From positions 1-64,000 of the forward strand of contig JAJDDG010000123.1 of assembly GCA_029260435.1 (NCBI GenBank): a stretch of DNA of 64,000 nucleotides. Direction: 5' to 3'. This document shows, piece after piece, positions 40,101 through 43,452 of this stretch (its first letter is position 1; each line of letters opens with the position of its first letter). Below the pieces are notes generated by a model. It made no database searches and had not been told where the DNA came from. It was given only the letters and a program-made list of their open reading frames with translations. The position numbers were made by a program, and so were the translations under genes. This stretch comes from Phycisphaerales bacterium. Lineage in GTDB: Bacteria; Planctomycetota; Phycisphaerae; Phycisphaerales; UBA1924.

Positions 40101-40262
40101 ACCAAACTCTCCAAGGACATCGCCGCTCTCGAAGGCCGCCTCAACAACCCCGGGTACACCAACAAAGCCCCCGAGCACCTCGTGCAGCAGACCCGCGACC
40201 AGCTCGACTCGAAGAAAGCCGAACGCGACGCCACCATGAAGCGCATCAAGGAACTCGCATGA
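37128..40262 (+). CDS. valS: valyl-tRNA synthetase
   Basis: The 1044-residue protein starts at GTG with AGGAG upstream. It has HLGH in the HIGH position (residues 55-58, IPPPNVTARLHLGHAL), KMSKS at 674-678, the CP1 editing domain with TVATTRPETYFGDTAVAVHP, and the C-terminal coiled coil (EENLTKLSKDIAALEGRLNNPGY) characteristic of ValRS. It charges tRNA-Val and hydrolyses mischarged Thr-tRNA-Val. A perfect inverted repeat GATCTC/GAGATC (37077-37093) lies in its upstream region. The next gene overlaps its stop as ATGA. Confidence 0.96.
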   Translation: MPELPKKYVPADHEPRIREKWADSNCFHADPSRVSADRPAYAMLIPPPNVTARLHLGHALNNTLQDILARTHRMRGFETLWMPGTDHAGIATQTVVEKRLIEAEGKRRTEYERDEFVAKVQAWKDEYEQVITTQLKTLGCSCDWERQRFTMDEICARAVREAFFRLFKDGLIYRGKRLVNWDPVTQTALADDEVEMKDVNGSFYYMGYPLVTKDSTPNNPIAVTWDQLKSLGYPNEFLPDDVRNGVGGDDDRAFVTVATTRPETYFGDTAVAVHPRDPRAAAVCAFKAELPLVGRLIPIIEDDYVVRPDFITGEDSGDPKAQMSTGFLKVTPAHDPNDWEIGKRHDLPVINVMAPDASISDQHGWEDTGDAGHKFVGLSREDARKMVVKEFEARGLLEKKVPYAHSVGHSYRSHAAIEPYLSDQWYVKVTDDRLRGAAQSALVADQRTTNTYPPSADVPGDGTMRFYPERYAKTYETWHDNLRDWCISRQLWWGHRIPVWRGSGDLLRSGDAAALGEAAEFMLKMSAEGRIAMQYKGEAMKLDRPDLELDDELSPFFICIRDPDGDNKELIEKLEAWGAVRDPDVLDTWFSSALWPLNTMGWPEPVDDSCAGLLSAFNPSAVLSTARDIITLWVSRMAMFNRYFTSPDGGKTPGQIPFDDVYIHALLQDGEGRKMSKSLGNGIDPIEIVDSHGADAMRFALCKMTTQTQDVRLPVEIDNATGKNSSPKFDEGRNFCTKLWNAARFAFMKLDAFEGKPLEAVAFTDLAPADVWMLSRLAGAIDKIESSIGGYQFSEYAQTMYDLVWRDFCDWYLEAIKPTIETSPGQQAVLKNVLDSILRLLHPVAPFITEVIHEQLRQYDRGVIRELKMGETGDVLAALHWPVAEAGLRNPEAESNFESLQRLTDAIRTTRSQAKVPTKARVTLHCDDITAALIKRGGRVVETLAGVEEITTDAAPDGSVALTFESSEMALSGFADLVDTGAEAKMQEENLTKLSKDIAALEGRLNNPGYTNKAPEHLVQQTRDQLDSKKAERDATMKRIKELA

Positions 40263-41368
40263 CCCCCCCTCCCCCCCACTCCACCACGCGAACCAAGCTT
40301 CTTGTGCTGGGCATGTGCCTGTTGCTCGGCGCGTGCGCATCCAACGCCCCACGCCCGATTGTGGATGTATCCCCCGCCGAGATCTCGCTGGGCGAGATCG
40401 GCACGCAATCCGCCGATGCTTCCGCATGGATCATCTCGCGCGAGCCGTGGCGCTTCGCCAGCGCGCAGGGCGAGATCATCCGCACGCCCAACTACCGCAT
40501 CTACACCACCGAGACCAACTCGATCATGAAAGACCGCCTCGCGGTCTTCGCCGAATACGCCCTCACCCACTACCGCCAGGCCCTCACCCCGCTGCCCCGC
40601 CCGCCCAAGCGCCTCGATACCTACCTCATGGACAACCGACCCCAGTGGGTCTCGCTCACCAAACGCCTGCTCGGCCCGCAGGGCGAACCCCTGCTCCAGA
40701 TCCAGCGCGGCGGGTACGCCTCGCGCGGCATCGGTGTGTACTACGACCTCGGGCTCTACGACACCCTCGCCATCGCCGCACACGAAGGGTGGCACCAGTA
40801 CACCCAGCGCACCTTCGCCGACTCGCTGCCTATCTGGCTCGAAGAGGGCGTCGCCACGTTCATGGAAGGGCACCGCTGGGCGAGTTCCACACCCGTATTC
40901 AAGCCGTGGAGCAACATCGAACGCTTCGAGCACCTGCGCGACGCCGTCGCCGACAGCATGCTCCTGCCGCTCGACGAACTCCTCTCCAGCTCGCCGCAGG
41001 AACTCCTGCCGCGCGTAGACGGCTCCATCCTCAACTACTACGCGCAGCTCTGGGCGCTCGTCCACTTCCTCAACGAGGGCGAGAACGGGCGCTACGCCAC
41101 ACCCCTGCGCACACTCATCGCCGACGCCGCAGCCGGCAAACTCCGCAAGCGACTCACAACCGAGCTCGGGCTGCGCGACGCCCGCGCCGCGATGGCATCC
41201 CGCACCGGCGCACTCGTCTTCGAGGTCTACTTCGATGTCCCGCTCGACGAGGCGGACAAGCAGTACCGCGCGTTCGTAGACCGGGTAATCGCCCTGGAAT
41301 CGCGCAGCGCGATCGCCGCCGGTCGCTCACCACTCCGCGCCGCAGCCGATCACGGAGGACGCCGATGA
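40259..41368 (+). CDS. lipoprotein zinc metallopeptidase-like protein
   Basis: It starts in the ATGA overlap with valS. The 369-residue product has a lipobox LLGAC with Cys26. H175-E-G-W-H179 in AIAAHEGWHQY is a HExxH site. WLEEGVATFMEG ~18 residues later gives the Glu ligand (E195 or E196), so it fits the gluzincin/peptidase MA-like pattern common in planctomycetal lipoproteins. The substrate is unknown. The coupling to valS is probably organisational, not functional. The downstream acetyltransferase begins within its stop. Confidence 0.72.
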   Translation: MTPPPPHSTTRTKLLVLGMCLLLGACASNAPRPIVDVSPAEISLGEIGTQSADASAWIISREPWRFASAQGEIIRTPNYRIYTTETNSIMKDRLAVFAEYALTHYRQALTPLPRPPKRLDTYLMDNRPQWVSLTKRLLGPQGEPLLQIQRGGYASRGIGVYYDLGLYDTLAIAAHEGWHQYTQRTFADSLPIWLEEGVATFMEGHRWASSTPVFKPWSNIERFEHLRDAVADSMLLPLDELLSSSPQELLPRVDGSILNYYAQLWALVHFLNEGENGRYATPLRTLIADAAAGKLRKRLTTELGLRDARAAMASRTGALVFEVYFDVPLDEADKQYRAFVDRVIALESRSAIAAGRSPLRAAADHGGRR

Positions 41369-41868
41369 TCGAACCGCACGACACATTCGCCGACCCGAAC
41401 ATCCGCGACGCGATCCCGGGCGATCAGCCCGAGGTGCTGCGCCTGTTCCACATCGGCTCGCTCGACCCGGACGCCCCCGAACTCCACGACCCGCCGAACG
41501 ATATCTACGACTTCCAGACCGCTTGGCTCGACAACGACGCCGCGAACCTCTGGGTTCTCGACGGCGACGCAGACGCCCTCGTGGGCATGGTCGGCGTGCG
41601 AGAACGCAACGAGGGCACCGCGGAACTCTGCCGCCTCCGTGTCGATCCCGGTTATCGGAATAAGGGTGTGGGACGCCGCCTCGTGCAGCACGCCGTCGAA
41701 TACTGCCGCACCCGAGATTACCTCAAAGTCATCCTTGATTCCTACGTCCAGCGTACCTCCGCGATCGCTCTATTCGAGCACCTCGGCTTCCGCCCAGCGG
41801 GCGAACATGTTAAAGCAGGCAAGCGCGTGATGGACTTTTATCTGGACCTCTACTCCGGCCCCACATAG
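41365..41868 (+). CDS. GNAT N-acetyltransferase
   Basis: The 167-residue protein has GGAGG seven bases before the ATG, which overlaps the previous stop (ATGA). Motif A is present as LRVDPGYRNKGVGRRLVQHAVEY, followed by SAIALFEHLGFRPAGE, a typical GNAT C-terminal half. The substrate is unknown. This is the last protein-coding gene before the 333-nt gene-free region. Confidence 0.82.
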   Translation: MIEPHDTFADPNIRDAIPGDQPEVLRLFHIGSLDPDAPELHDPPNDIYDFQTAWLDNDAANLWVLDGDADALVGMVGVRERNEGTAELCRLRVDPGYRNKGVGRRLVQHAVEYCRTRDYLKVILDSYVQRTSAIALFEHLGFRPAGEHVKAGKRVMDFYLDLYSGPT

Positions 41869-41939
41869 TCCACACAGGGATTCCACAGACAACTTGTGTT
41901 CTGCAATGACGTTGTTCGGTGTTTCCCCCCGCGCGCGGG

Positions 41940-42187
41940 GATTCAAATATAAAACAGGTTGTAACGGTTGGGAAAAGTCGCTTGCCCCTACCGATTACTC
42001 GGGGTAGTTTTACCTCCGAGGAAAGGGGCATTTTTCCTCACAACCCACCGGGACACATTCCCCGGAATCGAAATCATCCGCACAGCGGGTTTGATATCGG
42101 TCTCCGCGCGGCGATTGTGACCCCTAACTTTGGCTTCCCTCTTACTCAACGCCCCGGGCTTGCACCATGCAGGTTCGGGGTTTTTTT
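41940..42187 (+). ncRNA. candidate structured non-coding RNA
   Basis: The 333 nt from 41869 to 42201 contain no supported protein gene. On the plus strand a domain closed by GGTTGT (41957-41962) and ACAACC (42040-42045) encloses two hairpins: CTACC/GGTAG (41988-42007) and GAGGAAA/TTTCCTC (42018-42039), the latter stacking directly on the closing stem. Further hairpins are CCGGG/CCCGG (42048-42065) and CCGC/GCGG (42078-42088). A strong terminator closes the region. A TATAAA at 41948-41953 is a possible -10 element but no -35 is clear. I do not recognise tmRNA, 6S, RNase P or SRP RNA signatures. The boundaries are guesses. Confidence 0.35.
42152..42187 (+). terminator. strong intrinsic terminator, plus-strand specific
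   Basis: CCCCGGGCTTGCA (42152-42164) pairs along all 13 positions with TGCAGGTTCGGGG (42168-42180) around a 3-nt loop, and seven T residues follow. Three of the pairs are G-U, which would become A-C mismatches on the opposite strand, and that strand has no T-run. So the element works only rightward, yet the nearest plus-strand stop codon is 283 nt upstream. Confidence 0.8.
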
Positions 42188-42201
42188 ATGCGCGCACACA
42201 A

Positions 42202-43317
42202 CTACCCGCCGAACACAACCGCCGATTCCAACGCGAGCCCGAGCATCGGCCCCACCGTGTACCCCGCGCCGATCATCGCCTCGTGCTTACCACCCGCGTC
42301 AACATCCGTGGACCCCGTCTCCAGCGCGTAGTAGATCGCCGCCGCGTACACCGCCCCGATGCCCACACCCAGCATCGCCAGTCCGATCGCGAGCACCCAC
42401 CAACTCCCGCTCATCAGCGCGAGCACAAACCCGCCGAGCATCAACCCGCCCGACCACACCGCCGTCCGCGCGTGCCCGTGCCACCCGTGCCACGAGATCA
42501 TCAGCGCGAAGACCCCCAGTCGCGTGACCATCCACACAGAGGCGAGCACCGTGCTGTGCCGCACCTCCACGCCGAGCCCCTCGATCATCTGCGGCAATAC
42601 GGGTGAGAGCCCCGCGTGCAGCACATAGCTCCCGAGCAGGCACATACGAAACAACCTGCGCAGGCGCACGAGCGCCGCCAGTTCCTCCGGCGTATGCGCA
42701 TGCGCCGCGCTGCCGTGCTCCCCCGGGTTCCGTCTGAATAACACAAGCAACACGATCGACACGAGGTGGATCGGCACCAACACCCCGAGCACCCACAGCG
42801 GATGCTCCTCAAGCACCGGCGCGATCACCCACATCGCCACCACCAGTGAAGACGCCCACGACAAATTGAACAGCCCAGTCGCCCGACGCAGCGCCCGCCC
42901 CGAACGCCCGTCCGCGAGATAACTCTCCACCGTCGGCCAGACAAAACCGCACAGCGCGATGTACACCGTCGCGTACGCCACCAACGCCCACCGCTCCCCC
43001 ACCACAACCGGCACCACGCTCAACGCCGCCGCCCCCGCCAGCAGCAATCCAAGGAAACCCCGGGTCGAAAGCCGCTTGCCCCTCCCGACATGCCGCCCCA
43101 TGAGCCGCCCGGCAGACCAAGCGCAGACCGTATACGCCGCCCCCATCGACACCCCGAGCCACAGGTTGTCCACCCTGGTAAACCCGTGCGCCTCCTTGCT
43201 CACGAAGAACACGCCGTTCCACCCGATCGCCGTCCCGAAGCTCGTGATCCATGTCAACGTCAAACACGCCCACAGCGGCGTTGGTGTCGAAGATCGTTGC
43301 TCAGCAGGTGGTTCCAA
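42202..43317 (-). CDS. MFS transporter
   Basis: The 371-residue protein has about eleven to twelve hydrophobic segments and the major-facilitator layout of two six-helix halves. The loop after helix 2 reads AGRLMGRHVGRGKRLSTRG, an A-motif-like basic loop. A cytoplasmic central loop (RRNPGEHGSAAHAHTPEEL) separates the halves. Many MFS drug and sugar exporters look like this and the substrate cannot be assigned. It is divergent from the tRNA-Arg gene. Confidence 0.8.
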   Translation of the reverse strand: MEPPAEQRSSTPTPLWACLTLTWITSFGTAIGWNGVFFVSKEAHGFTRVDNLWLGVSMGAAYTVCAWSAGRLMGRHVGRGKRLSTRGFLGLLLAGAAALSVVPVVVGERWALVAYATVYIALCGFVWPTVESYLADGRSGRALRRATGLFNLSWASSLVVAMWVIAPVLEEHPLWVLGVLVPIHLVSIVLLVLFRRNPGEHGSAAHAHTPEELAALVRLRRLFRMCLLGSYVLHAGLSPVLPQMIEGLGVEVRHSTVLASVWMVTRLGVFALMISWHGWHGHARTAVWSGGLMLGGFVLALMSGSWWVLAIGLAMLGVGIGAVYAAAIYYALETGSTDVDAGGKHEAMIGAGYTVGPMLGLALESAVVFGG

Positions 43318-43378: not shown

Positions 43379-43452
43379 GCGCGTGTAGCTCAATTGGATA
43401 GAGCGTCGGCCTCCGAAGCCGAAGGTTGCAGGTTCGAGCCCCGCCACGCGTA
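43379..43452 (+). tRNA. tRNA-Arg (CCG anticodon)
   Basis: The full cloverleaf is visible. The acceptor 43379-43385 pairs with 43445-43451 (a terminal G-U then six Watson-Crick pairs). The D arm is GCTC/GAGC. The anticodon stem TCGGC/GCCGA carries loop CTCCGAA, so the anticodon is CCG for codon CGG. The T arm GCAGG/CCCGC has one A-C mismatch and loop TTCGAGC. CCA is not encoded. The GH31 gene ends 19 nt downstream on the opposite strand. Confidence 0.95.

What the first reader, a model, noticed from the sequence alone, without database searches (positions are those of the whole stretch)
41869..42201. Unannotated structured RNA candidate with its own strong terminator
Most convergent gene junctions in this window overlap or are separated by under 100 nt. 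This one is 333 nt, has no protein gene, and ends in a 13-pair stem followed by seven T residues that works only on the plus strand. Upstream hairpins stack in a plausible multi-branch domain closed by GGTTGT/ACAACC. The terminator lies 283 nt beyond the nearest upstream stop codon, which is hard to explain without a separate transcript.
Basis: partly seen in the sequence, partly recalled or inferred. Interest (0 to 1): 0.55.

Follow-up and report, generated by a model that had tools for sequence, protein, structure and literature searches.

The report
Conserved small RNA gene in Phycisphaerales
Between two genes of a little-studied planctomycete group lies what looks like a gene for a roughly 170-letter RNA with its own promoter and stop signal, and a 23-letter stretch of it is identical in all 20 genomes found to carry it, which points to an undescribed regulatory RNA.

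Summary
The plus-strand terminator is real. Twenty genomes (19 genera, Phycisphaerales) carry the element, one full-score copy each, at one place (DUF1570 gene before it in 20 of 20, convergent MFS gene after it in 19). Three parts are shared: (1) a promoter-like pair, TTG(C/A)-N19-TANNNT, spacer exactly 17 nt, in 19 of 20 loci (controls expect 0.09); (2) a 23-nt block, GGCTTCCCTCTTACTCAACGCCC, identical in 20 of 20, its first 19 nt unpaired in the local consensus fold; (3) the terminator hairpin, with a few compensatory changes. The predicted RNA is about 42017-42187, 171 nt. Its first ~115 nt tend to fold but differ between genera. No Rfam family matches. Best reading: a new trans-acting small RNA family that pairs with mRNAs through the invariant block, with an architecture like cyanobacterial Yfr1. 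Hfq and ProQ are absent above cut-off; CsrA is present. Own promoter and terminator: well supported by comparison. Expression, mechanism and targets: not shown; target searches found no clear excess over controls.

The parts
41982..41987 (+). -35-like element TTGCCC
   Evidence: TTG(C/A)-N19-TANNNT with a 17-nt spacer in 19 of 20 homologous loci, none of the 20 at spacers 13-16 or 18-21; 500 shuffle rounds mean 0.094, max 2 of 20; 175 of 39452 other windows of the same loci
42005..42010 (+). -10-like element TAGTTT (together 7 of 12 matches to the sigma70 consensus, so weak; not listed by the consensus scan)
   Evidence: same tests
42017..42187 (+). predicted small RNA, about 171 nt (5' end inferred as 7 nt after the -10 element, error of a few nt; 3' end at the T run)
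   Evidence: promoter-like pair, terminator, conservation; no transcript data
42018..42039 (+). 5' hairpin GAGGAAAGG-GGCA-UUUUUCCUC
   Evidence: RNA fold; the 5' domain is not alignable between genera
42050..42123 (+). long imperfect hairpin of the variable 5' domain
   Evidence: RNA fold of 42017-42131, z = -3.11
42132..42154 (+). invariant 23-nt block GGCTTCCCTCTTACTCAACGCCC; first 19 nt (42132-42150) = presumed pairing region, last 4 nt form the 5' side of the terminator stem
   Evidence: identical in 20 of 20 homologs; unpaired in the local consensus structure
42151..42187 (+). Rho-independent terminator: 14-pair stem with 3-nt loop, seven T
   Evidence: 3 of 14 stem pairs have compensatory double changes among 20 sequences
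40259..41368 (+). DUF1570 protein gene, syntenic neighbour
   Evidence: Pfam PF07607, 24.4 bits against cut-off 22; present upstream at all 20 loci (window itself the query)
41365..41868 (+). GNAT acetyltransferase gene directly upstream (not the upstream neighbour at every locus)
   Evidence: Pfam PF00583; gene order by ORF clusters
42202..43317 (-). convergent MFS transporter gene
   Evidence: Pfam PF07690; convergent at 19 of 20 loci

Best explanation
This is a stand-alone small RNA gene. A promoter at 41982-42010 starts an RNA at about 42017, and a Rho-independent terminator ends it at about 42187. The RNA has a 5' domain that tends to fold but changes fast, an invariant stretch GGCUUCCCUCUUACUCAAC, and the terminator hairpin. 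Most likely it acts in trans: the invariant stretch pairs with ribosome-binding regions or other sites of several mRNAs and changes their translation or decay, while the flanking structures keep the stretch accessible and protect the RNA. Shown by comparison: conserved promoter-like pair, invariant block, conserved terminator, synteny, one full-score copy per genome. Inferred: that it is expressed, that it pairs with mRNAs, which mRNAs, and that it does so without Hfq or ProQ, perhaps with CsrA.
For: 23-nt block identical in 20 of 20 homologs from 19 genera, while 18 MFS neighbours are only 33-48% identical to the window's. With up to 2 mismatches allowed, 12 of 201 order genomes match and all 12 have none. 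The covariance model splits cleanly: 20 of 400 order genomes at 75 bits or more, next best 35 bits. Promoter-like pair with a 17-nt spacer in 19 of 20 loci against 0.09 of 20 expected from shuffles and from other windows of the same loci. Terminator stem with three double-change pairs. Conserved gene order although the nearest upstream ORF family differs. No shared ORF seen in 17 predicted transcripts. Two compensatory pairs in the 5' domain between the only two same-genus copies. CsrA over cut-off in 22 of 23 genomes, Hfq in 0 of 26, ProQ in 0 of 23.
Against: No expression data. The promoter elements match the sigma70 consensus weakly (6 to 9 of 12 positions over 19 loci, window 7), and the consensus scan did not list the window's. 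In folds of the 17 full predicted transcripts the invariant stretch (18 nt tested) is unpaired on average with probability 0.60 (0.33 to 0.83), little more than with a shuffled 5' domain (0.53), so its openness is not clear. No target found: near-full complements of 18 nt (up to 3 mismatches) number 15 outside the gene itself against 26 for the reversed control; start-codon-linked searches give 2 against 7, 15 against 9 and 12 against 45. Many relatives in the same GTDB family lack it, so it is dispensable outside its lineage. Without Hfq or ProQ a trans-acting mode is less standard.
Confidence: 0.68

Rival explanations
1. An independent small RNA whose invariant stretch binds a protein (such as CsrA or another RNA-binding protein) or the ribosome rather than mRNAs, acting as a sponge or scaffold.
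For: A 23-nt perfect match over 20 genomes is strict for a pairing seed (judgement); no excess of complementary sites in three of four searches; CsrA is present in 22 of 23 genomes.
Against: The invariant block has no GGA, the core of CsrA sites (motif recalled), and is pyrimidine-rich, which fits pairing with purine-rich ribosome-binding sites. The 5' domain that could carry protein sites is not conserved.
Confidence: 0.17
2. The element is the 3' end of the upstream gene's mRNA (a 3'UTR terminator, or an RNA cut from the 3'UTR), not a separate gene.
For: It lies downstream of a same-strand gene, and read-through from GNAT into the terminator is likely in the window.
Against: A promoter-like pair with fixed spacing lies 142-179 nt before the block in 19 of 20 loci. 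The nearest upstream ORF family differs: DUF1570 gene at 10 loci, a GNAT-type cluster at 7, another ORF family at 3 (my reading of the clusters; frames not checked one by one).
Confidence: 0.06
3. A conserved DNA site (for example a recombination or protein-binding site) that happens to overlap a terminator.
For: One full-score copy per genome and perfect conservation, as for chromosome-dimer resolution sites (recalled).
Against: The block runs into a terminator stem that keeps pairing through changes, and a promoter-like pair on the same strand sits 142-179 nt upstream. An 18-mer of it was found in no viral contig, and the gene order around it is kept.
Confidence: 0.04
4. A leader or attenuator for a downstream gene.
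For: Hairpins followed by a terminator.
Against: The next gene is convergent at 19 of 20 loci, so there is no gene to lead.
Confidence: 0.02

Closest known systems
Yfr1 small RNA of cyanobacteria (PMC2190773; parts of the abstract and passages seen)
   Same: An unpaired stretch of 16-20 nt with an ultraconserved motif directly before a GC-rich Rho-independent terminator hairpin with a U tail; a 5' stem-loop; lost secondarily in a few strains.
   Different: Yfr1 is 54-69 nt with the motif ACUCCUCACAC. This RNA is about 171 nt, has a different conserved stretch and a large variable 5' domain, and sits in planctomycetes. The motif is in 0 of 17 predicted transcripts. No homology is claimed.
NsiR1 (Rfam RF02399), cyanobacterial nitrogen-stress RNA (PMC9045159; passages seen)
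   Same: Best weak Rfam match (21.1 bits, E 0.11, window 42131-42188): single strand, then terminator.
   Different: Below the gathering score of 39. NsiR1 is about 60 nt, in 12 tandem copies upstream of hetF in Nostoc 7120; here there is one full-score copy and a longer RNA.
Trans-acting bacterial small RNAs with C/U-rich seeds near a 3' terminator, in general (recalled)
   Same: Conserved pyrimidine-rich stretch, own promoter, Rho-independent terminator.
   Different: Hfq and ProQ not found above cut-off in these genomes; conservation of the stretch is unusually strict; no targets known.

Membership tests
Independent bacterial small RNA gene | own promoter | tested here: met
   TTG(C/A)-N19-TANNNT in 19 of 20 loci, 0.09 expected; sequence evidence only, weak match to the sigma70 consensus
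Independent bacterial small RNA gene | own terminator | tested here: met
   stem-loop plus seven T in the window; consensus stem over 20 sequences, 3 cells of 280 broken or gapped
Independent bacterial small RNA gene | no conserved protein-coding frame | tested here: met
   only 2 of 17 predicted transcripts hold an ATG ORF of 10 or more codons (20 and 10); GTG/TTG ORFs in 10 of 17 (up to 45 codons), none in the window; only the ATG peptides were printed, and the GTG/TTG ones were not compared
Independent bacterial small RNA gene | transcript detected | not testable with these tools
   no expression data for these assemblies
Trans-acting antisense sRNA | complementary sites in mRNAs of several genomes | tested here: inconclusive
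   no excess over reversed-pattern controls in three of four searches, 15 against 9 in the fourth; short imperfect pairing not tested
Hfq- or ProQ-dependent sRNA | chaperone gene in the genome | tested here: not met
   Hfq PF17209 over cut-off in 0 of 26 (one match below it, G015, 24.5 against 27 bits), ProQ PF04352 in 0 of 23; most are incomplete drafts, and distant versions could be missed
Yfr1 | unpaired ACUCCUCACAC motif | tested here: not met
   absent from the block and from 17 of 17 predicted transcripts; no Rfam match other than tRNA at the gathering score in the window or 20 homologous loci
NsiR1 (RF02399) | covariance model at or above gathering score | tested here: not met
   21.1 against 39 bits
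NsiR1 (RF02399) | tandem copies upstream of hetF | tested here: not met
   one copy per genome at full score, downstream of DUF1570-, GNAT- or other-type genes

The most novel reading that the evidence does not exclude
A lineage-specific master post-transcriptional regulator that works without Hfq and ProQ. One invariant 19-nt region, perhaps presented by CsrA, controls a regulon that could include exported and surface proteins. By eye, start-proximal sites in G038, G065 and G010 precede ORFs with signal-peptide-like starts, and a site in G083 lies some 90 nt before a likely PEP-CTERM protein; such sites were not above chance as a class and no predictor was run.
Probability: 0.15. Interest if true: 0.75.

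Novelty: new member of a known kind. Interest (0 to 1): 0.55.

Why it matters
Small RNAs are catalogued mostly from a few model groups; a 2022 review (PMC9029176, passages seen) says that outside the over-represented groups bacteria carry on average only 1 to 2. This is a sharply defined family with promoter, terminator and a perfectly kept presumed pairing region in Phycisphaerales. Four full-text searches listed no paper whose title or abstract start is about such RNAs there (listings only, plus passages of two of the listed papers). These genomes carry CsrA but no Hfq or ProQ above cut-off, so the family offers a case for asking how a trans-acting RNA works without the usual chaperones.

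Tried and rejected
Rejected: the multi-branch domain as the conserved part (its closing helix straddles the promoter). Rejected: a self-masking model in which the G-rich 5' end pairs with the invariant block. It looked promising (best duplex within the first 9 windows in 8 of 17 transcripts), but shuffled seeds did as well (31 of 60), so it is only composition. Rejected: spread by phages (18-mer in 0 viral contigs) or by moving between loci (conserved gene order).

Weaker covariance-model matches (35 bits and below). I first printed 12, of which three were read at wrong places; those were re-read correctly, and 20 matches, five of them among the 12, were read with upstream sequence. Of those 20, none has the block within 4 mismatches and none has the promoter pair at the expected place. 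Closest are two of one genus (G054, G327: 5 and 7 mismatches, with terminator) and three of another (G118, G149, G304: 5 mismatches, no terminator); I leave these open as possible distant relatives. Many further weak matches were not read.

Target searches gave nothing clear above controls. Of the 15 sites outside the gene I read 6, so a recurring target among the other 9 is not excluded.

Loss or absence. In 13 loci of relatives without the RNA the best match to the block in the 1500 nt at the downstream end of the locus has 8 to 11 mismatches. G026 has the DUF1570 and MFS genes almost end to end without the block. In a rough two-protein tree G026, G237 and G221 group next to a carrier (G015; local support 0.978 for the four, 0.67 for the three), which suggests loss. 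Other deep nodes are weak, and G038 (another GTDB family) groups near non-carriers, so the number of gains and losses is open.

Full report
What was checked. The 333-nt gap at 41869-42201 is real, lies between a GNAT gene (stop at 41868) and a convergent MFS gene (stop at 42202), and ends with a strong plus-strand terminator at 42151-42187. The whole stretch folds better than 100 shuffles (z = -3.96). At the gathering score Rfam finds only tRNAs, in the window and in 20 homologous loci. The best weak hit is NsiR1 at 21.1 bits against a threshold of 39.

Homologs. A BLAST search of 61 genomes showed eight relatives (E about 2e-9 or better) in which only about the last 75 nt match. An exact 20-mer from there occurs in 18 stretches of genome contigs (one genome for each of 84,980 species), all titled Phycisphaerales, Phycisphaerae, Phycisphaeraceae or Planctomycetota. 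With two mismatches allowed, 12 of 201 order genomes match, all without mismatch. In all I collected 20 distinct copies; G006 and G383 share a genus, so 19 genera. The alignment shows GGCTTCCCTCTTACTCAACGCCC unchanged in 20 of 20 and a 14-pair terminator stem in which three pairs have double changes that keep pairing. Because the copies were found by that block or by similarity to it, exactness could be partly a selection effect. The two-mismatch search and the covariance model argue against that: 20 of 400 order genomes score 75 bits or more and the next best is 35 bits. Among 294 phylum genomes only three reach the high range, and they are among the same 20.

Promoter and transcript. In the 85 nt that end 100 nt before the block, TTG(C/A)-N19-TANNNT occurs in 19 of 20 loci, always with a 17-nt spacer; spacers 13-16 and 18-21 occur in none, 12 and 22 in one each. 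Shuffled sequences give a mean of 0.094 of 20 and a maximum of 2 in 500 rounds; other 85-nt windows of the same loci and strand give 175 of 39,452, or 0.09 of 20. I shaped this pattern after looking at the sequences (a first, stricter form gave 17 of 20 against 0.035), so it is not a blind test, but the margin is very large. The sites match the sigma70 consensus at only 6 to 9 of 12 positions (window 7), and the standard scan did not list the window's. The twentieth locus (L113) has such a site further upstream, at -291. In the window the elements are 41982-41987 and 42005-42010, which puts the start near 42017 and gives an RNA of about 171 nt.

Structure. The window's 5' domain (42017-42131) folds into a short hairpin and a long imperfect one, z = -3.11. 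Over 17 predicted transcripts the mean z of this domain is -1.9, with 9 of 17 below -2; three loci (L113, L119, L124) were left out because the first pattern did not place their start. The sequence does not align usefully between genera. Between the two copies from one genus, 2 of 52 predicted pairs changed on both sides and kept pairing, 5 changed on one side and none broke; the structure was derived from the same two sequences, which favours kept pairs. The invariant stretch is unpaired in the consensus of the last ~80 nt. In ensembles of the full predicted transcripts it is unpaired with mean probability 0.60 (0.33 to 0.83), against 0.53 with a shuffled 5' domain, so the fold alone does not show that it is open.

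Context. The DUF1570 gene is at all 20 loci, the convergent MFS gene at 19 of 20 (missing in G025), and valS at 17 of 20, with two of the other three contigs ending inside the DUF1570 gene. Of 20 homologous loci, 16 have a tRNA beyond the MFS side within the 1.5 kb held; the window's is at 43379-43452. The MFS proteins share only 33-48% identity with the window's, so the block is far better kept than its neighbours. In 9 relatives without the RNA that I opened, 8 show no MFS match there (one, G280, ends about 600 nt past the DUF1570 match), and G026 has the MFS gene with the RNA missing.

How it might work. A conserved pyrimidine-rich stretch before a terminator is the layout of pairing regions in known small RNAs, most clearly Yfr1 (PMC2190773, passages seen). 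I searched for targets four ways, with the reversed pattern as control. In 20 carriers: near-complete complements, 15 against 26; AGTAAGAGGG near ATG, 2 against 7. In 18 of the 20 carriers (G362 and G383 left out): AAGAGGGAAG near ATG, 15 sites against 9; GAGTAAGAG near ATG, 12 against 45. The gene's own complement was removed before these counts (20, 3, 4 and 3 rows; also one duplicate row). I read 6 of the 15 sites, both, and all. Some precede likely real genes, including apparently exported proteins, but I saw no gene recur. The targets are therefore open. Hfq was over its cut-off in 0 of 26 genomes (one weaker match, in G015) and ProQ in 0 of 23; CsrA was in 22 of 23.

Verdict. On comparative evidence a real small RNA family that is not in Rfam, with expression and mechanism to be tested. 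The claim that it is a separate RNA gene I hold at about 0.93; that it acts by pairing in trans, at about 0.68.

Noticed in passing
L081:1501-1578, L084:1501-1576, L086:85-162, L087:1501-1538 (four species of one genus in another family of the order): A different pyrimidine-rich element, of the kind CTCCTCTCTCTCC, followed by a GC-rich terminator; in three of the four an ORF that looks like DUF368 (recalled motif) ends about 210 nt upstream. Possibly another small RNA family.
   Followed up: partly
L246 (G054:C1:165059-165131) and L247 (G327:C121:1295-1369): Two species of one genus share TCACTCAGACTCAACCCCCCGGTCC before a terminator, which resembles the 3' half of the invariant block; no promoter pair at the expected place. 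May be a distant relative or chance.
   Followed up: partly
L256, L257, L258 (G118, G149, G304, one genus): GGCTTCACACTTACGCATCGCC, 5 mismatches from the block, kept in three species but without a terminator hairpin after it.
   Followed up: no
L016:699-765 (minus strand; G060): A weak match that starts CCCCTAACTTTG and continues TCTTTCTCCTCCTCCGCCCC plus a terminator-like end; may be a distant relative or chance.
   Followed up: no
L158:5360-5373 (G026): The DUF1570 and convergent MFS matches end 13 nt apart with the small RNA missing; looks like a loss.
   Followed up: partly
window 42202-43317 and the 20 carrier loci: The MFS gene sits at this junction in 19 of 20 carriers and was not matched there in 8 of 9 non-carriers opened (one of these stretches is short), so transporter and RNA go together at this place.
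   Followed up: partly
23 Phycisphaerales genomes: 22 of 23 genomes have a CsrA match over the cut-off, 20 of them two or three, mostly in two score classes (about 85-92 and 50-57 bits), in genomes without Hfq or ProQ above cut-off.
   Followed up: no
window 41925-41960: A GC hairpin (CCCCGCGCGCGGGG) followed by an A/T-rich stretch after the GNAT gene; may be that gene's own weak terminator.
   Followed up: no
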